Assembly (NCBI GenBank): GCA_024655885.1
Contig: JANLFN010000007.1
Coordinates: forward strand, 1-64,000
Origin: Eubacteriales bacterium
Lineage (GTDB): Bacteria > Bacillota > Clostridia > Acetivibrionales > JANLFN01
Length of the DNA: 64,000 bases
Reading direction: 5' to 3'
The notes beneath the pieces are model-generated. The model made no database searches, was not told the DNA's origin, and saw only the letters and a list, made by a program, of their open reading frames with translations. Both the position numbers and the translations under genes were made by a program. This document shows, in pieces, positions 51,134 to 62,868 of the stretch (position 1 is the first letter of the stretch; every line of letters starts with the position of its first letter).

Positions 51134-51207
51134 AAGTGGCTAATCCACTTATTTATGCCTATAGGACAGTATTGTGCACCCAAGAAATACACACAGGAGA
51201 CAAGAAC

Positions 51208-51852
51208 ATGGAAATTCTACTTGGCAGTGAACCGTACAAAATCAGTTATTTGCAAAAAATATACGATTTATACATGAAAATAGGATTTGACTCTACTACC
51301 TATAAACACTGTTTAAATGTAGCCCTTTATTCCGTCCAGTTTGGAAAATCCTTAGGTTATTGTCCGAATGAAGCACTGGCATATTATTCCGGATTATTCC
51401 ACGATATCGGAAAGTTGCAGATAGATCACCACATCCTTAATAAGACGTCCGCTCTGAGCAAGAATGAATTTAATATCATGAAGCATCATCCCTCCTATGG
51501 GTACGCAATTTTATTACAGGCCGGCCTTCCCAAGGAAATTTCGGAAGCCGTCCTGCACCATCATGAGCATTACGACGGTACAGGCTATCCTTCAGGCCTT
51601 AAAGGAGATAAAATCCCTTTTCTGGCAAGAATGATATCGGTGTGTGATGTGTTTGATGCCCTTACCTCGGACAGGCCATACAGAAAAGCTTATTCCATCG
51701 ATAAAGCCATGCAGATAATGAACCGGTGTAAAGGCCAATTCGACCCTGAGCTTTTGTACCATTTTACATCAAAAGCGCCAAAAATTCTTCATGTGGATGA
51801 AGTAAAGGCAAAGTCGGAATTAAACGGAAAAATATGTAAAAGGAATGCCTAG
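51208..51852 (+). CDS. HD-GYP domain protein (putative c-di-GMP phosphodiesterase), 214 aa
   Basis: A stand-alone HD-GYP domain without sensor. HCLNVALYSVQ, HDIGKLQIDHH (HD metal site), HHHEHYDGTGYP (GYP) and DVFDALTSDRPYR are intact, so hydrolysis of c-di-GMP to pGpG or GMP is predicted. The ATG at 51208 has AGGAGACAAGAAC; the frame extends to a GTG at 51136 without a site. The c-di-GMP riboswitch upstream implies feedback on second-messenger levels. It ends inside its own terminator and converges on the REC-HD-GYP gene. Confidence 0.92.
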   Translation: MEILLGSEPYKISYLQKIYDLYMKIGFDSTTYKHCLNVALYSVQFGKSLGYCPNEALAYYSGLFHDIGKLQIDHHILNKTSALSKNEFNIMKHHPSYGYAILLQAGLPKEISEAVLHHHEHYDGTGYPSGLKGDKIPFLARMISVCDVFDALTSDRPYRKAYSIDKAMQIMNRCKGQFDPELLYHFTSKAPKILHVDEVKAKSELNGKICKRNA

Positions 51853-51862
51853 GCATTCCTTT
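51837..51862 (+). terminator. Terminator overlapping the HD-GYP stop codon
   Basis: AAAAGGAATGCC-TA-GGCATTCCTTTT is a perfect palindrome whose centre contains the TAG stop. Short T-runs occur on both strands, so it may serve both convergent genes. Confidence 0.75.
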
Positions 51863-51918
51863 TGCGGACACCTTTATATTTGAATATAATATGTAGCGTT
51901 CCTCTAAAGAGCCATAGT

Positions 51919-53430
51919 TTATTCATAAGTGGCAGCCGCTTCATGAACGAATTGGTCACAATTCTCCAGCAGCGAAATAAATCGATCTACAATGAAAGCG
52001 TCAAATTGGGTCCCTGCACCTTCCAGCAGCTGTCTCTTCGTTTCCTCCAAATTTAACTTGGGTCTGTACAGCCGGTCGGACAGCATGGCGTCAAAAGCAT
52101 CGGCAACGGCGATTATCCTGGCCAGCAAGGGTATCTCATTCCCCTTTAACCCCTCGGGGTAACCTTCGCCGTCAATTCTTTCATGATGGGATTTGACGAT
52201 GGGAGCAACTTCTTTAAACATTGAAACAGCTGAGAGGATATGAGCTCCTTTTAGCGGATGCTTTTTTATCTCTTCAAATTCCTTTTCATTCAGCTTATCC
52301 GTTTTTAGCAAAATATCATCCGCAGTTCCAATTTTGCCCACATCGTGGAAGATGCCGCCCACTCTCAGCATTTCCAGCTCCTGCGGGGAAAGTCCCAGTG
52401 TCTCCCCGATTTTAACGGCATAATGTGCAACCCTGTCCGAATGTCCCCTTGTATACATGTCTTTTGCGTCAACCGCCAGCCGGAGAGCTTCTATGGTATC
52501 CATGTACCTTATTTTCAACTCATTATAGGTTATGTTGAGCTCCTCGTTCTTTATATTTACAAGGGAATGCAAAAAAGCATTGTTCAAAGAGGAGGCCGCC
52601 TGATTTGCATATATTTCAAGCAGCTTTATCCCTTCTTCGGTATCGCTGCTTTCCACAAAAATCACACCCATGGACTGGAGGTACTCATTTACCAGGGGAA
52701 GTATAACTCCGTTGTCCAGCCGCACAACTTCCTTTGTTGTCCTTGCATAGCCAATACCCTCCATTAAGTTCGGACTGAGCATTTCCATAAAATCACCGAT
52801 CTCCGTCCTGTATCGGCCTATACCCTTAAATATACTCTTGTCGCCTTCATTGGCGGTTTTTGTAATATTGTCGACAAGAATAAAAGCGTTGTCACTATTC
52901 ACAAGAGGCATGATCTCGGTCAAAATTTCTTCCAGAATATTTCCTACCGGCTGCAGCTGATAAATTTTAGGTACCGCTTGCAGAATGCTGTTCAGGCCGT
53001 CTTTAAATTTTTTTATGGTGTTCAACTGGGAAATGGACTTAATCCCCGATTCAACCAATAGAAGCAGCTGGTCGAACCTGTCGCTTTTCTCACAATACCC
53101 CTGTATGTCCAGTGCCCTTATGGTTTCCAAAGGAGGGGCTAAATCCTTGTGTCCTGTCAGAAGGAGTATGTATAAGTCTCTATTGAATTCCCTTATTTTT
53201 TCCACAACCTTATCCCCATGGATAGGATTCATCAGGTAGTCTAAAATGAGAAGGTCATAATGCTCCTCACGAACTTTTTCAATAGCTTCCAATGGATTTA
53301 CAATACCTGTAAAATTATAACCCATGCGTCTCAAAACAACGGACAGTGAATCAATGATACCTATTTCATCATCTACAACCATTATTTTATAGCCAGAGCT
53401 AGAAGAAGCCGCTATGTTTCTCTTTCTCAT
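51919..53430 (-). CDS. Response regulator with REC, DUF3369-like and HD-GYP domains, 503 aa
   Basis: The receiver (about residues 14-130) has VVDDE, the phosphoacceptor in LLILDYLM and LTGHKD. A DUF3369/GAF-like central region (about 135-305) follows, then a HD-GYP core (about 315-490) with HSDRVAHY, HDVGKIG, HHERIDGEGYP and DAFDAMLSDR. Phosphorylation by the adjacent kinase should control c-di-GMP turnover. The ATG overlaps the kinase stop (ATGA) and has GGGAGG upstream. Two-gene operon; convergent with the riboswitch-controlled HD-GYP gene. Confidence 0.93.
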   Translation of the reverse strand: MRKRNIAASSSSGYKIMVVDDEIGIIDSLSVVLRRMGYNFTGIVNPLEAIEKVREEHYDLLILDYLMNPIHGDKVVEKIREFNRDLYILLLTGHKDLAPPLETIRALDIQGYCEKSDRFDQLLLLVESGIKSISQLNTIKKFKDGLNSILQAVPKIYQLQPVGNILEEILTEIMPLVNSDNAFILVDNITKTANEGDKSIFKGIGRYRTEIGDFMEMLSPNLMEGIGYARTTKEVVRLDNGVILPLVNEYLQSMGVIFVESSDTEEGIKLLEIYANQAASSLNNAFLHSLVNIKNEELNITYNELKIRYMDTIEALRLAVDAKDMYTRGHSDRVAHYAVKIGETLGLSPQELEMLRVGGIFHDVGKIGTADDILLKTDKLNEKEFEEIKKHPLKGAHILSAVSMFKEVAPIVKSHHERIDGEGYPEGLKGNEIPLLARIIAVADAFDAMLSDRLYRPKLNLEETKRQLLEGAGTQFDAFIVDRFISLLENCDQFVHEAAATYE

Positions 53431-55274
53431 CCAATTGCCTCCCGGTCAACATATGTGTCTGTATTTGGTATGGATATATAAAATGCCGTCCCCTTGCCTA
53501 CTTCCGACTCAACCCACATATTACCGCCAAATCTCCCCTTGATGTTTGCATAGGACATATAAAGACCCAAGCCCGTGCCGTTTTTTCCTTTTGTTGTCAC
53601 CATTTCCTTAAACAGCCGCTCTTTTATATCCGGCTGAATTCCTTTACCATAATCTTTTATTGTAAATACAATATTATTATCAAGCTTTTCCAGTATAAAG
53701 TCAATATCCCCTTTTTCGCCTTCATAGGCCTGAATGGCATTGATTACGATATTGTCAAGTATCTGCACCAGATTGTTAATATCCCCTTTGAGTTGAGTGT
53801 TCAAATCAATACGAAAATCCGTTCTTAGTATACAGTGATATTTTTTTAGTTCATGGGCCATCAATACTTCTACCCTTTTGACAAGCTCATCAAGAGTAAA
53901 ACTGTATGTGGAGGATGTGTTCAGTTGAACCGCCTGTCCCTTAACCGTAGTGATCACATCCGACATGTAGGAGCAGTAGGGTTTCATTTTATCCAGCCAG
54001 GACATCATTTCTCCCGCAATTTCATGGTGGTCCTCAGGTGTAACGCTTGTGTCTCCTATGGATTCCTCATATTCCTTTACCAGGTCCTTTAAGGCCTCGA
54101 TTCCCCCTGAGATGGACATGATGGGGGTCTTCAGATTATGGGCGATACCCCCTATCAACTGCCCCAGAGATGCAAGCCTTTCCTGCTCCATGATGATGGA
54201 TTGATTCTCCTTTATGGTCTCCAGGTCTTTCTTGCTCTGTGTAATGTCTTTCAAGAGTATGATTGTCCCGATGTAATTATTTTTTGAAATAATGGGGGTT
54301 ATTTCCACGGCAAAATACCTGTCGAAATTGTGTGCCTTGATCTGTTTTTCAAATACGAAGGATTTCCCCGTTTTCTTTATCTGGTCAATGACGGCGATGA
54401 TTTCGTTTCCGTCAACATTTACCGTGGGATTGGAACTTAAAATATCGGTAATGCTGGTATTTCTTTTGACTTTAAATATAGTCCCGAAGATGTTTAAAAA
54501 GGTCTGGTTATAATCCACCACCGACAACTCTTCATTTACGACAATGAAGCCGTCTGAAATAAGGTCAACGATCTTCTGCAAAGCGATTGGGGCAATACTT
54601 AAAAATTTGAATTTAAATATGGCATACATGTAACATATCACGGCAAATGAAAAGGCTATGGGAGTGGCATATTCCGTAAGAGAAATTATTTTAAACGTGG
54701 CAAATACATTCACCAAAACCGGCACCGTACTTCCTACAAGGATCAGGATGGACTGCCTTGAAAAAAACCCGGAGTTTTTTATGGAGAATATAATTAGGTT
54801 ATACAGCCCCACTCCTATGCAGATATACGAATAAACGGCATGTATGATAAAATATTTCCCCACAACCAGTTCATTGGTATTCAAAGAGTAATTAATATAA
54901 AACAAGTGGTGATAATTGTCGGTCATTAAAACTAAAATAGATATTATGGGGATGACGAACAGCAATATATGCTTTGAGGATAGTGTAACTTTGGTATGGG
55001 CAAATATAATGCCGATAAATAATAAGAACGGAGGTACAAAAACCAGCCCGATATGGGTTATTATGAAAAAAATAAAATATGTATGCTTAAATATGGCCTG
55101 GGTATAGGTATTGGTCAAAATACCCGAGTTCCAGAGAAGCATGGAAAGTATGCAGCATAAAAATGCATAATGTATCTGCGTCCTGCGTTTCATTCTGAAA
55201 ACTAAAACAGCTGTGAACAGTAAAAGCAGTATGGATAGGTGAAGCAATACAAAAGGAAAACTATACTCTATCAT
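53427..55274 (-). CDS. 7TM-type sensor histidine kinase with PAS domain, 615 aa
   Basis: Seven or eight N-terminal helices (about residues 5-230) match the HisK_7TM-type sensor module. A PAS domain (about 235-350), a histidine box GGIAHNLKTPIMSISGG (about 368-384) and a HATPase domain with DNIVINAIQAYEG, DYGKGI and GTGLGLYM follow. The H-box sequence HNLKTP replaces the usual HELRTP, common in this clostridial group. The ATG at 55274 follows GGGGAG by six bases. Partner of the REC-HD-GYP protein downstream; signal unknown. Confidence 0.92.
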   Translation of the reverse strand: MIEYSFPFVLLHLSILLLLFTAVLVFRMKRRTQIHYAFLCCILSMLLWNSGILTNTYTQAIFKHTYFIFFIITHIGLVFVPPFLLFIGIIFAHTKVTLSSKHILLFVIPIISILVLMTDNYHHLFYINYSLNTNELVVGKYFIIHAVYSYICIGVGLYNLIIFSIKNSGFFSRQSILILVGSTVPVLVNVFATFKIISLTEYATPIAFSFAVICYMYAIFKFKFLSIAPIALQKIVDLISDGFIVVNEELSVVDYNQTFLNIFGTIFKVKRNTSITDILSSNPTVNVDGNEIIAVIDQIKKTGKSFVFEKQIKAHNFDRYFAVEITPIISKNNYIGTIILLKDITQSKKDLETIKENQSIIMEQERLASLGQLIGGIAHNLKTPIMSISGGIEALKDLVKEYEESIGDTSVTPEDHHEIAGEMMSWLDKMKPYCSYMSDVITTVKGQAVQLNTSSTYSFTLDELVKRVEVLMAHELKKYHCILRTDFRIDLNTQLKGDINNLVQILDNIVINAIQAYEGEKGDIDFILEKLDNNIVFTIKDYGKGIQPDIKERLFKEMVTTKGKNGTGLGLYMSYANIKGRFGGNMWVESEVGKGTAFYISIPNTDTYVDREAIG

Positions 55275-55407: not shown

Positions 55408-58400
55408 CTATTTTAAAAATCCGACCTTTTTCATGTATTCAATTAATTTTAAAATATAGGCCCTATCTATATCCGGCCATTCAAAATCAAGCTTTTTTAA
55501 ATATTCTACCGTATCTTTGGATTGGACAATCACAGCCGGAGCATAGTGAAGCTCTTTTTCACCATTAAAATCCTGGATAACCCCTCTGAGAATTTCCTGC
55601 CTGCTGCTGTCTCTGGATATTTGCTCAATATACTCTTTAAACTGTTCCTTCCCCAGCACTTCCACATGGATGCCCACAGACTCCAGCAGTCGAAACAGGT
55701 CTTTCAGCTTTATCTTGTGATGGTTGAACATGTGGAATATCTTCCCCGGAAGCACGCCGCCCATGATTGATTTTACAATGGCTTTACTGCAGCAGTCAAC
55801 GGGAGTAAATTCAACTTCCTGCTCCAGCATGTCCTCCGAAACAGCACCCATTTGTATCAAAGACTTTATTCTGTTATAAAAAGCATTCTGGTCCACATTC
55901 ACCTGAAAATGTCCATCCCTGTGCCGGCCTGTCAGGTTCCCCACTCTGAACACCATGGCCTTCAAGTTTGAACCCGTCGCCCTGTAAATCAAATTCTCAG
56001 CCAAAAATTTACTTCTTACATACACATTCTCTTTAAAGTTTTGACCGATGTAAAAATCGTTTTCGGTCATCAATACAACCGGCTTTTCTTTTTCTTCCGG
56101 TTTCCCGGGAGAATTTCCCGAAATGCCGACGGTTGAAATGTGGCCCAGAGGAATTCCGTAAGACAGGCAAAACTCCATAACCTCTTTTGTGCCCTTAACA
56201 TTGATCTTTTCATATTCGTGGTAATCCCCATAGTGTTTTACCAGGGCCGCTGTATGTATGACCATGTCGGTTCTTTCTCCCAGTTCGGAGTACAAGTCTT
56301 CCGGCATTCCTAAACGGGGCAGGGTAATATCCCCATTGACCACATGAATTCTTTTTCCTATTTCACCGGAGTATTTGGTGCCAAAATAGAACTCCAGCAT
56401 TTCCATGAGGCGGTTTTGCGCATGCTCATGGTTTCGACCCCGTACCAGGCAGTAAAGATGGGCTTCTGTACTTGATAAAACCTCATCCAATATGTGAATA
56501 CCTAAAAATCCGGTGGCCCCTGTCAGCAAAACATTGTCCAATTTTAACTGTTCAAAGCCTGTTTCCACCCCTGCCGCCTGTTCCAGAACTCCCCCTGTGA
56601 ACAGATCCATATATTCCTCCGGGACCGCCGTATTATTCTCACAACTGCTCAGCTCTCCGCTAATCTTGGAATACAGTTCCCTGATGGTCTGATACTGGTA
56701 AAAATCCTGTGTAGTCAAACCCCAATCATGTGAAAAAGCTTTTATCTGCACCTGGATTATAGCTAAAGAATCTCCTCCCATCTCAAAAAAATTATCGTTG
56801 ATTCCTATTCTATCCACGTGCAGCACTTCAGACCAGATGCGGGCCAGTTCATTTTCAATTCTATTCCGGGGAGCTTCATATCCGGCAGCCGTATCCATAT
56901 TGGAGTCAGGCATGGGAAGAGCCTTCCTGTCGATTTTTCCACTTGGAGTCAACGGCATTTTCTCCAGCCTCATGAAATGGGAAGGGATCATGTAATCCGG
57001 CAGCTTCGATGAAAGAAAGCTTCTGAGGTCGGATACCGCCAGCTCTCTATCCGAAACAAAATAAGCACATAGATATTTATTCTTTAAAGGGCCTTCCTGG
57101 GCTGCCACAACAGCTTCTTTAATCTCCGGGTGGTTTAAAAGATGGCTTTCAACCTCGCCTAATTCTATCCGGAATCCTCTAATCTTAACCTGATGGTCTA
57201 TTCTGCCCACAAATTCTATATTCCCATCCGGCATCCATCTGGCTATATCCCCCGTTTTATACATCCTCTCCCCGGGAAAAAAGGGATCGGGTATGAACTT
57301 CTCCGCTGAAAGGTCAGGCCTGTTTAAATAGCCTCTTCCCACACTGTCGCCCGAAATATACAATTCTCCCCCTATTCCCACAGGGAGCGGCATGCCGTCC
57401 TTACCCAGGATATATATTCTGGTGTTGGATATGGGTTTGCCTATGGGAGGAAGAACGGGAATATCCCCGTCCGGCATCATTGTATATGCCGTAACCACAT
57501 GAGTTTCCGACGGGCCGTAATGGTTGTGCAGGCAAATATTATTTCTTTTCAGGTACTCCTTAAATTGCTCGGTAAGGATCAATTGTTCCCCTGCAACAAT
57601 TATATGCCGGACAGTGGCAGGCAGCCGCTTCAACAGCTCCTCCTCATTGATAACCAGTTTTAAATAGGATGTAGGCAAAAATATGGTGCGGATTTCATTC
57701 TCCTCAATAAACCTGAACAGCTCCATGGCATTTCTTTTTAGCATATCTCCCGCAATATGCAGCTCTCCGCCGGACAGCAGTGTGGAGAATATTTCCTGGT
57801 AGCAGACATCAAAGCTTATGGTGGCAAACTGGAGCACCTTGCAGCGAAACTCCAGGTTGGTTTTTGTAAACTGGTATTTCATCAGGTTAACCATATTCTT
57901 ATGTTCAAGCATAACCCCCTTCGGCTTCCCGGTAGAACCGGAGGTATAAATCACATATAACAGGTCCCCGGGCTTATTGACCGTTTCCGGATTAGTGCAC
58001 GCACCCTTGTATAATTGGCTGTCATCGATATTGACCATTCTTCCTCTATACTTGATTTTTTCCCCCAAATCGCCGCAGGTCAGCAATAATGGGGCATTAC
58101 TGTCTTCAAGCATGTAGGCGATCCTCCCCTGGGGGTAATCGGGATCTATGGGCAAAAAAGCACCTCCGGCTTTAAGTATGCCCAGGACTCCTATCACCAT
58201 TTCCGGTGACCTGTACATGGAAATGGCCACTATACTGTTGGGTTTTACCCCTATTTCTCTTAAAGCTCTTGCCAGCTGATTGGATTTTTCATTCAATTCC
58301 CTGTATGTCAGCTTCCTTCCCTCAAAAACAACGGCAGCGGCATCCGGGGTTCTTTCCGCCTGTTTTTCAAACAGCTGATGAATGGTCCCTTGGACAGGAG

Positions 58401-61400
58401 AATCCCGCCGGGTATCGTTAAAGTGGTAAAAAAGCCGGTGCCTCTCTTCTCCGGTGAGCATGTCCACTTCCCCCAGCAGTTTCTCGGGATTAGAGGCTAT
58501 TATGCCCAGGATATTCGTAAAGTGTGCTATGAGCCTTTCAATGGTTGCCTTCTTAAAAAGTTTTGTACAGTACTCCAGGCTGAAAACAATATCTTCGTCC
58601 CTTTCCACCGCCTCCAGCAGCAGGTCGAACTTCGCTATCCGGTGGATATCCTTATAGGGGGTGAGCTTAAGGTCCCCTATTTTTATCTCCGCCGTATCCA
58701 CATGCTGTAAGACAAACATGGTGTCAAAGAGCGGATTTCTGCTCAAATCCCTCCTGAGCTTCAGTTTTCCTACCAGCTCCTCAAAAGGATAATCCTGGTT
58801 TTCATAGGCCTTCAGTGCCTGGGCTTTTACTTCTTCAAGAAACTCGGAAAATTTTTTTGAGGCTGTGGGATAGTTCCTCATGACCAGCGTATTTACAAAC
58901 ATTCCCATTATGCCCTCCAGGTCCGCGTGCCTTCTGCCCACAATGGGAGCGCCCACCAAAATATCCTCCTGTCCCGAGTATTTATAGAGCAGCACATTAT
59001 ATGCGGCCAGCAAAACCATATACAAAGTTGCCCCCATTTGATTTGCCAGCTTTTTTATACTCCTTGACAGTTCCTTTCCCGCATGGAAATACAGGATGTC
59101 TCCTTCATAACTCTGTATGGAGGGCCTGGGATAATCGGTAGGCAGATCCAATACGGGAATTTCTCCCGACAAAATATTCAGCCAATTCTCTTCCTGTTTT
59201 TTGATATAGTCCGAATGATACAATCCGTTTTGCCATGCGCAGTAATCCTTATACTGTATTCTCAGGGCCGGCAAGGACTCTCCTGCGTATAGCTTGTCCA
59301 GATCATGCAAAAGGATCTCCATGGATGCCCCGTCACATATAATATGGTGCAAATCCAACAACAGGATGTGCCTGTTTTCCGCCAGCTTCACCAGCTTCAC
59401 CCTCAACAGGGGAGCTTTACTTAAATCAAAAGGCCGGATAAACGTTTCAATAATCTCTTTTACAGCAGTTTCATCCGATTCCATAAAATCAATATTAAAA
59501 TCAACCCTGTCGGAGATTTTTTGGACAGGCTTCCCATCCACCATTTTGAAGGATGTCCTAAAAGCTTCATGCCTTTTTATCAGCTCCGCGAAGGCATTTT
59601 CAAATCGGGTCCTGTCCAATTTTCCTTCCAGCACCATAATGCCCGGCATATTATAGGCTATGCTGTCCTCCTCCAGCCGCATTAATACAAAAAGCCTTTT
59701 TTGCGCCGATGACATGGGATAGTATTCCTGTTCTTCTACAGGCTCAATGGGAATATATAGGCTTTTTTGGGCACTCTTAATGTATGTCCCCAATTCCTTT
59801 ATTGTGCGGACCTTGTACAGTTCTTCCAGCGGGACCTGAATGTTAAAATGTTTGTTTAGCTTTGAAACAAGGGATATCAGGCTTAAAGAATCGCCTCCCA
59901 GTTCAAAAAAATCATCCTGTATCCCTACCCTGGTCACCTTTAGCACTTCACACCATATTTCCGCCAGCTCTTTTTCAACCTCATCGGTGGGAGCGATATA
60001 CTCGGACGTGATATAAGTGCTTGTTTCAGGCTCGGGCAGTTCATCCCGGCTGACCTTTCCGTTGGGACTTAAAGGGATCTTATCCATTTGCACAAAAAAT
60101 GACGGAATCATGTATCCGGGCAGTTTTTCCGAGAGGAAAGTCCTTAAGTCGGGCAGCCATAGTTTTGTGTCCGATTCAAAGTATGCACACAAATATTTTT
60201 TCCCTTGACCGTTTTCCCGGTCCATTACTACTGCTTTCTTTATACCTTTGTATTTTAATATCCAGTTTTCTATTTCTCCCAGTTCTACTCTGAAGCCTCT
60301 TATTTTTACCTGGTGGTCTATTCTTCCTAGAAACTCAATATCCCCCTTCGGGAACCACCGCGCCAGGTCACCTGTTTTGTACATTTTTTCTCCGGGAATA
60401 AAAGGGTTTAAAATAAACCTTTCCTCTGTCAGTCCGGGCTTATTCAAGTATCCTCTTCCAAGCCCTTCCCCTGCAATATACAGCTCTCCCGGAACTCCTA
60501 TGGGAACAGGGTTTAGATATTTATCCAATATATAGATACGGGTATTGGCTATGGGTTTGCCGATGTTGATGGTTTTCTCTTCCGTTAAATCTTTAAATGT
60601 AACTCCTACCGTTGTTTCAGTGGGTCCATACCCATTAAATATTCTGGCCTTTGTTATCTCTTTCAACCGCTCCAATAAATTTTTAGTAAAAACTTCCCCC
60701 CCGATGATTATTTCTTTTATATTTTTAAAACAGGCCTCGCAATCCTTGTCCTCAGCTAACAGCTGAATCCTGGACGGTGTTGCATGGATCTTTTCAACGC
60801 CGTGCTTAAGAATTAATTCACTCGTCAATTTGGGCATTTTCCGTTCATCTTCATTGGCAATGACGATTTTCAATCCTCTCATAAGTGAAGGCAGCAGTTC
60901 AAATACAAATATATCAAAGGAAATAGTAGATATTGACAGAACCGTAACCCCCGGAGAAAAATCCATCAAATCGCATACTCCTTTAGTAAAGTTGTTTACA
61001 CATTTATGCTCGATCATGACGGCTTTGGGATCCCCTGTGGAGCCCGAAGTATAGATTACATACGCCAAATCACCGGACCTGTTTATATTCTCCAAGTTAG
61101 AGCTGTTTCCCGTATAGACCAGCGGAGAATCTATTTCTATAATTACAGGCCCCGGCTTGATCCTGTCTTTTAACTGAGCCTGTGTCAATATAAGCTCAAC
61201 ACCGCTGTCCTGGAGCATATAGCTTATCCGGTCGTCAGGATATTCCGGATCTATGGGCAAATAGGCCCCTCCGGCCTTAAGTATTGCCATAATGCCAATG
61301 ACCATTTCAAGTGAACGGCCAATCATGATTCCCACAATACTATCGGGCCTGACACCTCGATCCCTCAGAACCCTTGCCAGCTGGTTGGATTTTTCATTCA

Positions 61401-62868
61401 GTTCTCTATAGCTTAACTGCCTGTCCTCAAAAACAGCCGCCAAAGAATGGGGTGTCCTTTCCACCTGTTCCTCAAACAGTTGCTGTATGGTTTTATCTTT
61501 TGGGTATTCGGTTTCCGTTCTGTTAAATCCCAGCAATATTCTTTGCTTTTCTTCTTCCTCCAGGATTTCAAGCCGGCATATTTTTTTATGCGGGTTTCTT
61601 ATGGCATCCTGCAGCAAAGCCAACATGTGTTTATGAATATATTCCATATCTTTGGCCGAAAATACATCGGGAAGGTAGTCGTAATTCAGTATTAAGTTAC
61701 CGTCATTCTCCCTTTCATCAATATGAATATAAAGGGAATCGGTCTGATGACCGTTAAAATGCCATCTGCCCTCATAATTGCCGATATATGTAGATTTATT
61801 CAGTTTGGCATTCTGATACGATAGAACAATATCATAAAGATGGTCGCTGTTCCTGTGTTTCTCCCTGATATCTTTAAGCAGCAAGTCGTAAGGATATTCA
61901 TAGTGCCTCAAAACAAGCATCCACTCTTTGACTATGGATTGGATAAAACCAGAAAAGTCAAGCTCCTCCTCTATATTAATCCGGATAGGTACCGTGCTAA
62001 TAAACATTCCGGCTATATTTTTCTCTCTTGCATTGCACCTGTTTAAAACCGGCGTACCCAGAACAATCTCCTTCTTTTGTGTAACCCTGCTGATGTATAT
62101 GGAAAGTACGGCAAGAAAAAACGTGAAGATTGAAGTTTTACTTTCGGCACAGTACCGGTGTATTTGCGACGCCAGTTCTACAGGAATTACGAAGGCCTTT
62201 CTCTTTGATCTGGTACTTTTGAAAGGGGCACTTTTACTTTTTAAGCTGGTAATTTCCGGGACATCGGTAAACCTGGAATTCCAGAATTCCCTGTCTCTAA
62301 TAAATTTTTTAGAATTCTTATAGCTTTTTTCCCTCAAAATGAATTCGGTGTACGAAGGCATCTTTTCTGAAGGGATTGCAGTGCCGTTTACAAGGCACCC
62401 GTAGTATTCCATGATCTGATTTACAATCAGCGATATCGTCCATGCATCCGAAATCAAATGATGGGTTTTTATGTAAAAGCCTCCCTCGTTGTGGCTGATT
62501 TTCACGAGAGCAAAATAAAAGAGATCGGATTCTATCAGGTTAAAAGGTTTCCGTGTCTGGTATTCATCCCATTTATACAATTCTCCGATAGTTTTTCCGC
62601 TAAAATCAAAAAAATCAAGCTTTATGTAATTATACTCGGAAATATACTGTTTCGGCTCATCCTCGGTTTCAACCATTCTTAGCCGCATTGAATCATTTTT
62701 TTGTATGGCAGTATTGATCGCTTTTTCAAGCAATGCATAATCAATATTTCCTTTTATCTTGGCTGTGCCTGCAATATTCCCAATGCTGGTATGAGGATGC
62801 AACTTTTCCGTATACCATATTCCTTTTTGCGGATGTGTCAGTGGATAGTACATATCTCTCATACTCAT
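55408..62868 (-). CDS. Dimodular NRPS C-A-T-C-A-T-R with terminal reductase, 2486 aa
   Basis: A nonribosomal peptide synthetase. Domains: C1 (about residues 5-440; HHLISD at 136-141), A1 (460-945; YTSGSTG at 606-612), T1 (phosphopantetheine Ser994 in GGDSL), C2 (1048-1480; HHIICDG at 1174-1180), A2 (1495-1985), T2 (Ser2034), thioester reductase R (about 2110-2486; GATGFLG at 2117-2123, Tyr2283 and Lys2287). Pocket residues read DVQFIAHVVK for A2, a proline-type code, and DIFHIGGVGK for A1, not assigned. The leading C suggests an N-acyl starter or a partner in trans. Reductive release predicts an aldehyde or alcohol. ATG at 62868 has GAGGAGG upstream. No PPTase, MbtH or transporter lies nearby. 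Confidence 0.93.
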   Translation of the reverse strand: MSMRDMYYPLTHPQKGIWYTEKLHPHTSIGNIAGTAKIKGNIDYALLEKAINTAIQKNDSMRLRMVETEDEPKQYISEYNYIKLDFFDFSGKTIGELYKWDEYQTRKPFNLIESDLFYFALVKISHNEGGFYIKTHHLISDAWTISLIVNQIMEYYGCLVNGTAIPSEKMPSYTEFILREKSYKNSKKFIRDREFWNSRFTDVPEITSLKSKSAPFKSTRSKRKAFVIPVELASQIHRYCAESKTSIFTFFLAVLSIYISRVTQKKEIVLGTPVLNRCNAREKNIAGMFISTVPIRINIEEELDFSGFIQSIVKEWMLVLRHYEYPYDLLLKDIREKHRNSDHLYDIVLSYQNAKLNKSTYIGNYEGRWHFNGHQTDSLYIHIDERENDGNLILNYDYLPDVFSAKDMEYIHKHMLALLQDAIRNPHKKICRLEILEEEEKQRILLGFNRTETEYPKDKTIQQLFEEQVERTPHSLAAVFEDRQLSYRELNEKSNQLARVLRDRGVRPDSIVGIMIGRSLEMVIGIMAILKAGGAYLPIDPEYPDDRISYMLQDSGVELILTQAQLKDRIKPGPVIIEIDSPLVYTGNSSNLENINRSGDLAYVIYTSGSTGDPKAVMIEHKCVNNFTKGVCDLMDFSPGVTVLSISTISFDIFVFELLPSLMRGLKIVIANEDERKMPKLTSELILKHGVEKIHATPSRIQLLAEDKDCEACFKNIKEIIIGGEVFTKNLLERLKEITKARIFNGYGPTETTVGVTFKDLTEEKTINIGKPIANTRIYILDKYLNPVPIGVPGELYIAGEGLGRGYLNKPGLTEERFILNPFIPGEKMYKTGDLARWFPKGDIEFLGRIDHQVKIRGFRVELGEIENWILKYKGIKKAVVMDRENGQGKKYLCAYFESDTKLWLPDLRTFLSEKLPGYMIPSFFVQMDKIPLSPNGKVSRDELPEPETSTYITSEYIAPTDEVEKELAEIWCEVLKVTRVGIQDDFFELGGDSLSLISLVSKLNKHFNIQVPLEELYKVRTIKELGTYIKSAQKSLYIPIEPVEEQEYYPMSSAQKRLFVLMRLEEDSIAYNMPGIMVLEGKLDRTRFENAFAELIKRHEAFRTSFKMVDGKPVQKISDRVDFNIDFMESDETAVKEIIETFIRPFDLSKAPLLRVKLVKLAENRHILLLDLHHIICDGASMEILLHDLDKLYAGESLPALRIQYKDYCAWQNGLYHSDYIKKQEENWLNILSGEIPVLDLPTDYPRPSIQSYEGDILYFHAGKELSRSIKKLANQMGATLYMVLLAAYNVLLYKYSGQEDILVGAPIVGRRHADLEGIMGMFVNTLVMRNYPTASKKFSEFLEEVKAQALKAYENQDYPFEELVGKLKLRRDLSRNPLFDTMFVLQHVDTAEIKIGDLKLTPYKDIHRIAKFDLLLEAVERDEDIVFSLEYCTKLFKKATIERLIAHFTNILGIIASNPEKLLGEVDMLTGEERHRLFYHFNDTRRDSPVQGTIHQLFEKQAERTPDAAAVVFEGRKLTYRELNEKSNQLARALREIGVKPNSIVAISMYRSPEMVIGVLGILKAGGAFLPIDPDYPQGRIAYMLEDSNAPLLLTCGDLGEKIKYRGRMVNIDDSQLYKGACTNPETVNKPGDLLYVIYTSGSTGKPKGVMLEHKNMVNLMKYQFTKTNLEFRCKVLQFATISFDVCYQEIFSTLLSGGELHIAGDMLKRNAMELFRFIEENEIRTIFLPTSYLKLVINEEELLKRLPATVRHIIVAGEQLILTEQFKEYLKRNNICLHNHYGPSETHVVTAYTMMPDGDIPVLPPIGKPISNTRIYILGKDGMPLPVGIGGELYISGDSVGRGYLNRPDLSAEKFIPDPFFPGERMYKTGDIARWMPDGNIEFVGRIDHQVKIRGFRIELGEVESHLLNHPEIKEAVVAAQEGPLKNKYLCAYFVSDRELAVSDLRSFLSSKLPDYMIPSHFMRLEKMPLTPSGKIDRKALPMPDSNMDTAAGYEAPRNRIENELARIWSEVLHVDRIGINDNFFEMGGDSLAIIQVQIKAFSHDWGLTTQDFYQYQTIRELYSKISGELSSCENNTAVPEEYMDLFTGGVLEQAAGVETGFEQLKLDNVLLTGATGFLGIHILDEVLSSTEAHLYCLVRGRNHEHAQNRLMEMLEFYFGTKYSGEIGKRIHVVNGDITLPRLGMPEDLYSELGERTDMVIHTAALVKHYGDYHEYEKINVKGTKEVMEFCLSYGIPLGHISTVGISGNSPGKPEEKEKPVVLMTENDFYIGQNFKENVYVRSKFLAENLIYRATGSNLKAMVFRVGNLTGRHRDGHFQVNVDQNAFYNRIKSLIQMGAVSEDMLEQEVEFTPVDCCSKAIVKSIMGGVLPGKIFHMFNHHKIKLKDLFRLLESVGIHVEVLGKEQFKEYIEQISRDSSRQEILRGVIQDFNGEKELHYAPAVIVQSKDTVEYLKKLDFEWPDIDRAYILKLIEYMKKVGFLK

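What the first reader, a model, noticed from the sequence alone, without database searches (positions are those of the whole stretch)
55408..62868. NRPS predicted to release an N-capped Xaa-prolinal
The order C-A-T-C-A-T-R with intact HHxxxDG motifs, phosphopantetheine serines and a reductase nucleotide site predicts an aldehyde. The A2 pocket reads DVQFIAHVVK, which matches proline codes (DVQLIAHVVK-like), and its HNHYGPSETHVV region is typical of proline A domains. A leading C domain suggests N-acylation. Peptide prolinals are classical inhibitors of prolyl oligopeptidases; related clostridial NRPS make peptide aldehydes and pyrazinones. The A1 code DIFHIGGVGK has no clear match.
Basis: partly seen in the sequence, partly recalled or inferred. 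Interest (0 to 1): 0.78.

Follow-up and report, generated by a model that had tools for sequence, protein, structure and literature searches.

The report
Peptide-aldehyde synthetase with its own sensor
A clostridial enzyme predicted to make a small fatty-acid-capped, proline-ended peptide aldehyde is the first gene of a conserved three-gene unit with a membrane sensor kinase and a second-messenger-degrading regulator, which suggests that the peptide is a bacterial signal and not only a protease inhibitor.

Summary
One intact ORF (ATG 62868 to 55408, minus strand) encodes C-A-T-C-A-T-R, the only NRPS in the genome. The second A domain is proline-type: its pocket matches the GrsB1/TycB1 proline domains at 145-149 bits, against 34 bits or less for all others. 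The first C domain is a starter (N-acylating) domain: it lies in a 60-member clade made up only of N-terminal C domains (support 0.991). Two details need correcting. C1 reads HHLISDA, not HHxxxDG, which is the usual form in its family. The A1 residue is unresolved.

The next two genes, a 7TM histidine kinase and a REC-DUF3369-HD-GYP response regulator, form an operon with the NRPS. The kinase directly follows short starter-C NRPSs in 26 of 27 loci surveyed across Bacillota, whether the release domain is R, TE or an unknown one. In partial Mantel tests the NRPS specificity codes track the kinase's sensor half, not its kinase half, though in the 7TM group this is not independent of NRPS lineage.

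Best explanation: an N-acyl-Xaa-prolinal made as an autoinducer-like signal, sensed by its own kinase and relayed to c-di-GMP hydrolysis. No paper I could search describes the cassette. Product and sensing are inferred.

The parts
55408..62868 (-). NRPS gene, C-A-T-C-A-T-R, 2,486 aa from ATG 62868
61525..62850 (-). C1: starter-type condensation domain (HHLISDA)
   Evidence: best PDB match RzmA starter C; clade of 60 N-terminal C domains, support 0.991
60010..61476 (-). A1: adenylation domain, code DIFHIGGVGK, substrate unresolved
59764..59994 (-). T1: carrier domain, LGGDSL
58420..59736 (-). C2: ordinary elongation condensation domain, HHIICDG
56902..58392 (-). A2: proline-type adenylation domain, code DVQFIAHVVK
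56662..56892 (-). T2: carrier domain, MGGDSL
55411..56562 (-). R: terminal thioester reductase (NAD_binding_4), GATGFLG, Thr/Tyr/Lys present
53427..55274 (-). Histidine kinase: HisKA_7TM + PAS + HisKA (HNLKTP) + HATPase (GTGLGL)
   Evidence: conserved downstream of short starter-C NRPSs
51919..53430 (-). Response regulator: REC + DUF3369 + HD-GYP (HDVGK, HHERIDGEGYP); start overlaps the kinase stop by 4 nt
51838..51863 (-). Terminator-like perfect hairpin after the regulator gene; none found on this strand between the NRPS, kinase and regulator genes

Best explanation
The NRPS loads an unidentified amino acid on module 1. Its starter C domain N-acylates that residue, probably from an acyl-CoA. 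Module 2 adds L-proline, and the R domain releases the chain by two-electron reduction as an N-acyl-Xaa-prolinal, possibly in equilibrium with a bicyclic hemiaminal. The small lipophilic product then acts as a signal. It reaches the co-encoded 7TM histidine kinase, which phosphorylates the co-encoded REC-DUF3369-HD-GYP regulator, and this changes c-di-GMP hydrolysis. Shown here by sequence: domain order, intact motifs, starter type of C1, proline type of A2, gene order, and conservation of the cassette. Inferred: acyl donor, A1 residue, aldehyde as final form, sensing of the product by the kinase, and direction of the c-di-GMP effect.
For: A2: the pocket segment scores 149 and 145 bits with the GrsB1 and TycB1 proline A domains, the next best being 34. 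The same code is the fourth module of an iturin-like Tyr-Asn-Gln-Pro synthetase in L041. Relatives in two other families also have a Pro-type A2 before the reductase: L112, full C-A-T-C-A-T-R, and the partial L167. C1: best PDB match is the RzmA starter C, and the clade of 60 N-terminal C domains has support 0.991. R: catalytic residues align with solved reductases. Linkage: 26 of 27 short starter-C NRPS loci with downstream sequence are followed directly by this kinase on the same strand, spaced -103 to +113 bp. In a class census, 20 of 29 decidable C1-like domains have the kinase, and seven of the nine without are assembly-line starters ending in a C domain. R-NRPSs whose first C domain is not of this clade (L121, L199) lack it. 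Window genes: 4-nt kinase/regulator overlap and a terminator only after the regulator. Regulator HD-GYP motif intact in 13 of 13. Co-inheritance: Mantel r 0.58 (Cs-kinase) and 0.82 (Cs-HD-GYP), 0 of 2000 permutations. NRPS codes correlate with the sensor half given the kinase core (7TM r 0.31, p<0.0002; other sensor class r 0.23, p 0.047), but not with the core given the sensor.
Against: No product has been seen and no sensing shown. In the 7TM group the code-sensor correlation falls to r 0.095, p 0.11 when NRPS lineage (Cs distance) is the control. L116 has the synthetase without the kinase. Kinases of this family also occur without an NRPS next to them (L149-L151, L159, L160, L162-L164). Published relatives are described as protease inhibitors (PMC8518294). 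A1 is unassigned. The genome has only an AcpS-type PPTase hit, so NRPS activation must rely on it or on an undetected enzyme. An R domain can also reduce by four electrons.
Confidence: 0.55

Rival explanations
1. The product is a secreted N-acyl-Xaa-prolinal protease inhibitor (defence or host interaction). The two-component genes only tune the operon or the cell's state in response to another cue.
For: N-acyl dipeptide aldehydes from clostridial NRPSs are reported as cathepsin and proteasome inhibitors (PMC8518294; PMC12327764).
Against: The regulator has no DNA-binding domain. Linkage holds when the release domain is TE or X, so the product need not be an aldehyde. Product code tracks the sensor half of the kinase. 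No S9 peptidase in the own genome.
Confidence: 0.25
2. The kinase senses the product for self-protection or feedback (an immunity-type sensor), not for cell-cell signalling.
For: Sensor kinases beside antibiotic genes commonly do this (established knowledge). The linkage and co-divergence data fit equally well.
Against: The genes next to the cassette, inspected in L112, L113, L119 and the window, show no shared transporter or detoxification gene. The output is HD-GYP, not a transcription factor.
Confidence: 0.15
3. The R domain reduces by four electrons and the product is an N-acyl-Xaa-prolinol alcohol.
For: Sequence does not separate two- from four-electron R domains with the tools here. The model of MxcG, another reductase NRPS, matches.
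Against: Family products described are aldehydes (PMC8518294).
Confidence: 0.15

Closest known systems
Clostridial N-acyl dipeptide aldehyde NRPSs (N-octanoyl-Met-Phe-H, BGC0001686; ruminopeptin, N-acyl Leu-Glu-H; PMC8518294, PMC12327764)
   Same: Clostridial NRPS; same predicted product class. The shared layout (starter C, two modules, terminal reductase) is recalled, not compared by sequence here
   Different: Second module is proline-type, giving a tertiary-amide prolinal that cannot form the usual pyrazinone; here tied to a kinase and HD-GYP regulator, which the passages read in those papers do not mention
AusA (aureusimine/phevalin synthetase)
   Same: Two modules and an R domain; R domain aligned
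   Different: AusA has no leading C domain (recalled); NCBIfam AusA equivalog score 1694.5, below its cut-off of 2500
Rpf/DSF system (RpfF-RpfC-RpfG) of Xanthomonas
   Same: Works alike on paper: signal synthase, sensor kinase and REC-HD-GYP regulator encoded together (recalled)
   Different: NRPS instead of the RpfF crotonase; simple 7TM-PAS kinase, not a hybrid kinase
Cqs/Lqs alpha-hydroxyketone systems
   Same: Multi-pass membrane sensor kinase encoded beside the synthase of a small lipophilic signal (recalled)
   Different: Synthase is an NRPS, not a CqsA/LqsA-type PLP enzyme
Pyrrolobenzodiazepine synthetases (e.g. tilivalline NpsB)
   Same: Reductive release of a proline-terminated chain (recalled)
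   Different: No starter C; partner is an anthranilate that cyclises; not known to be linked to a kinase (recalled)

Membership tests
N-acyl dipeptide aldehyde NRPS | N-terminal starter C domain | tested here: met
N-acyl dipeptide aldehyde NRPS | C-A-T-C-A-T-R in one protein | tested here: met
N-acyl dipeptide aldehyde NRPS | R domain with nucleotide site and Thr/Tyr/Lys | tested here: met
N-acyl dipeptide aldehyde NRPS | Product is an N-acyl dipeptide aldehyde | not testable with these tools
   needs expression and LC-MS
N-acyl dipeptide aldehyde NRPS | Sequence clustering with the characterised members (BGC0001686, rup) | not tested
Proline-specific A domain (A2) | Pocket code and pocket segment closest to proven Pro domains | tested here: met
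AusA equivalog | NCBIfam NF047350 score above 2500 | tested here: not met
   1694.5 bits
Rpf/DSF system | REC-HD-GYP regulator encoded with the signal synthase | tested here: met
Rpf/DSF system | Crotonase-type synthase and hybrid RpfC kinase | tested here: not met
   NRPS synthase; no REC/Hpt in the kinase
Autoinducer quorum sensing (any) | Kinase output changes with the co-encoded synthase's product | not testable with these tools
   only indirect: code-sensor co-divergence

The most novel reading that the evidence does not exclude
A Bacillota-wide family of signalling cassettes in which a one- or two-module lipo-NRPS writes the signal and a co-transcribed 7TM (or HAMP-type) histidine kinase plus HD-GYP regulator reads it. 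The A-domain code sets a strain's 'word': Pro, Ser, Thr, Gly, His and Asn are predicted in different species.
Probability: 0.5. Interest if true: 0.9.

Novelty: new variant of a known kind. Interest (0 to 1): 0.77.

Why it matters
If the kinase reads the peptide, clostridial N-acyl dipeptide aldehydes, so far studied mainly as protease inhibitors, would first of all be signals made by the bacteria for themselves, with a defined receptor and a c-di-GMP output. It would give anaerobes, possibly including gut producers, a nonribosomal quorum-sensing chemistry whose signal can be partly read from A-domain codes. It would also make testable why gut bacteria make these aldehydes.

Tried and rejected
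Sensor class does not follow module number: an early impression that one-module reductase NRPSs pair with HAMP-type kinases and two-module ones with 7TM kinases failed on more loci (L195, L196, L198, L202, L203, L208, L209). Own-genome prolyl oligopeptidase as target: none found. A1 substrate: no near code with known specificity; the resemblance to hydroxyphenylglycine codes is recalled and weak. AusA membership: below cut-off. Chance adjacency: rejected; with tens of kinases among about 3,000 genes a random neighbour would be a kinase in roughly 1-2% of cases, an estimate of mine. Literature: ten searches found no paper linking NRPS, histidine kinase and HD-GYP in Clostridia, and none holding both 'prolinal' and 'nonribosomal peptide synthetase'; the library is open-access only, and the two primary papers on the gut family (Guo 2017; the ruminopeptin paper) could not be read. 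No structure prediction was run: the allowed inputs would not have given a useful alignment.

Full report
Observation. The stretch holds one intact gene on the minus strand. Pfam finds two condensation, two AMP-binding and two carrier domains and one NAD_binding_4 reductase, in the order C-A-T-C-A-T-R. It is the only NRPS in the 3.44 Mb genome. Carrier serines, A-domain cores and the reductase nucleotide site are intact. One claim is wrong in detail: C1 reads HHLISDA, not HHxxxDG. That is normal for its clade, where 38 of 47 relatives have DA.

Second A domain. The code recomputed from an alignment is DVQFIAHVVK. The pocket segment alone finds GrsB1 (148.6 bits) and TycB1 (145.3 bits) in the PDB, with the third match at 34.4 bits. 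Those two domains load proline (established knowledge). An internal control comes from L041, a Bacillus synthetase whose codes read Tyr, Asn, Gln and DVQFIAHVVK, the Tyr-Asn-Gln-Pro order of iturin-type synthetases (recalled). The first A domain, DIFHIGGVGK, has no near neighbour of known substrate.

First C domain. Its best solved relative is the starter domain of RzmA, which condenses acyl-CoA with the first amino acid (PMC7804268). Among 370 C domains, its best 30 or so foreign matches are all N-terminal, after which scores drop to about 140 bits. In a tree of 398 domains it sits in a clade of 60, all N-terminal, support 0.991. The residue matching RzmA Arg148, which blocks long acyl chains there, is Ile in the window and is not Arg in any relative counted. 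A chain longer than acetyl is therefore plausible but unproven. C2 is an ordinary elongation domain and groups with C2 of L112 and L113.

Reductase. The R domain aligns with an NRPS PCP-R protein (6vtj), MxaA and AusA, with the Thr, Tyr and Lys positions kept. Two- or four-electron reduction cannot be told from this.

Relatives. L112 (another family, 36-64% identity by domain) has the same architecture, the HHxxxDA motif and a Pro-type A2. L167, a partial gene in a third family, has DVQFVAHVVK. NRPSs of clostridia are reported to make N-acyl dipeptide aldehydes such as N-octanoyl-Met-Phe-H, and Ruminococcus makes ruminopeptin (PMC8518294, PMC12327764). With proline last, the amide nitrogen is tertiary; ring closure would have to use the Xaa amide and give a bicyclic hemiaminal (inference).

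Surroundings. Directly behind the NRPS lie a histidine kinase (HisKA_7TM, PAS, HisKA, HATPase) and a response regulator (REC, DUF3369, HD-GYP). Kinase and regulator overlap by 4 nt, and the only minus-strand terminator-like hairpin found is behind the regulator. The same three genes recur in L112, L113 and L119. Over all short starter-C NRPS loci found by NRPS searches and with downstream sequence, 26 of 27 have the kinase next, on the same strand; L116 is the exception. A census with C1 alone in 346 genomes of the class gave 32 places of at least 200 bits: 20 with the kinase (one across a contig break), 3 at contig ends, 9 without. Seven of those nine are assembly-line starters that end in a C domain and carry no release domain. 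Reductase NRPSs whose first C domain is outside the clade (L121, L199) lack the kinase. A phylum-wide kinase search again landed beside starter-C NRPSs in L203-L212 and L214. Release domains vary (R, TE, and an unknown domain X), so what is conserved is a short lipo-NRPS with a sensor, not the aldehyde.

Does the kinase read the product? Indirect tests only. Distances of starter C, kinase core and HD-GYP correlate (Mantel r 0.58 starter C-kinase, 0.68 kinase-HD-GYP, 0.82 starter C-HD-GYP; 0 of 2000 permutations each), so the genes travel together. NRPS codes correlate with the sensor half given the kinase core (7TM class, n 28, r 0.31, p<0.0002; other class, n 15, r 0.23, p 0.047), but not with the core given the sensor. 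The weak point: with NRPS lineage as the control, the 7TM correlation is r 0.095, p 0.11. Both enzymes look functional: HNLKTP and GTGLGL in the window kinase, HDxGK and HHxxxDGxGYP in 13 of 13 regulators, closest solved relative a cyclic-dinucleotide phosphodiesterase.

Reading. The most likely account is a signal synthase with its own sensor and a c-di-GMP output, comparable in logic to Rpf/DSF but with unrelated parts. Protease inhibition, self-protection sensing and release as an alcohol remain open. The NRPS alone is a new member of a known kind; the cassette is, as far as the searchable literature shows, an undescribed variant of autoinducer circuits.

Noticed in passing
L123:8003-9211 (+); also L124, L204, L205, L223, L224, L225, L272: About 400-residue C-terminal domain X ending one-module starter-C NRPSs where a reductase or thioesterase would sit; the L123 copy has no Pfam match. 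Possibly an undescribed NRPS release domain.
   Followed up: partly
window 51136-51852 (+): A second HD-domain protein resembling the regulator's HD-GYP part lies tail-to-tail with the operon.
   Followed up: no
L132 (G000:C10:64794-65147): The genome's only PF01648 hit is an AcpS-like PPTase; no Sfp-type enzyme was found, although an NRPS needs its carrier domains primed.
   Followed up: partly
L195, L196, L198: Starter-C two-module reductase NRPSs of about 3,050 residues, some 560 longer than the window's; L195 and L196 have the regulator upstream. The extra part was not identified.
   Followed up: no
L149, L150, L151: The same kinase-regulator pair without an NRPS, behind an unrelated gene that by eye resembles a PilZ/YcgR-type c-di-GMP receptor (not tested).
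   Followed up: no
L265-L269: Starter-C NRPSs of about 1,500 residues ending in a C domain (Cs-A-T-C), without the kinase.
   Followed up: partly
L120, L202, L131, L128, L129: Cassette NRPSs with textbook codes for Thr (DFWNIGMVHK) and His (DSELTAEVCK), as recalled; good first targets to identify a product.
   Followed up: no
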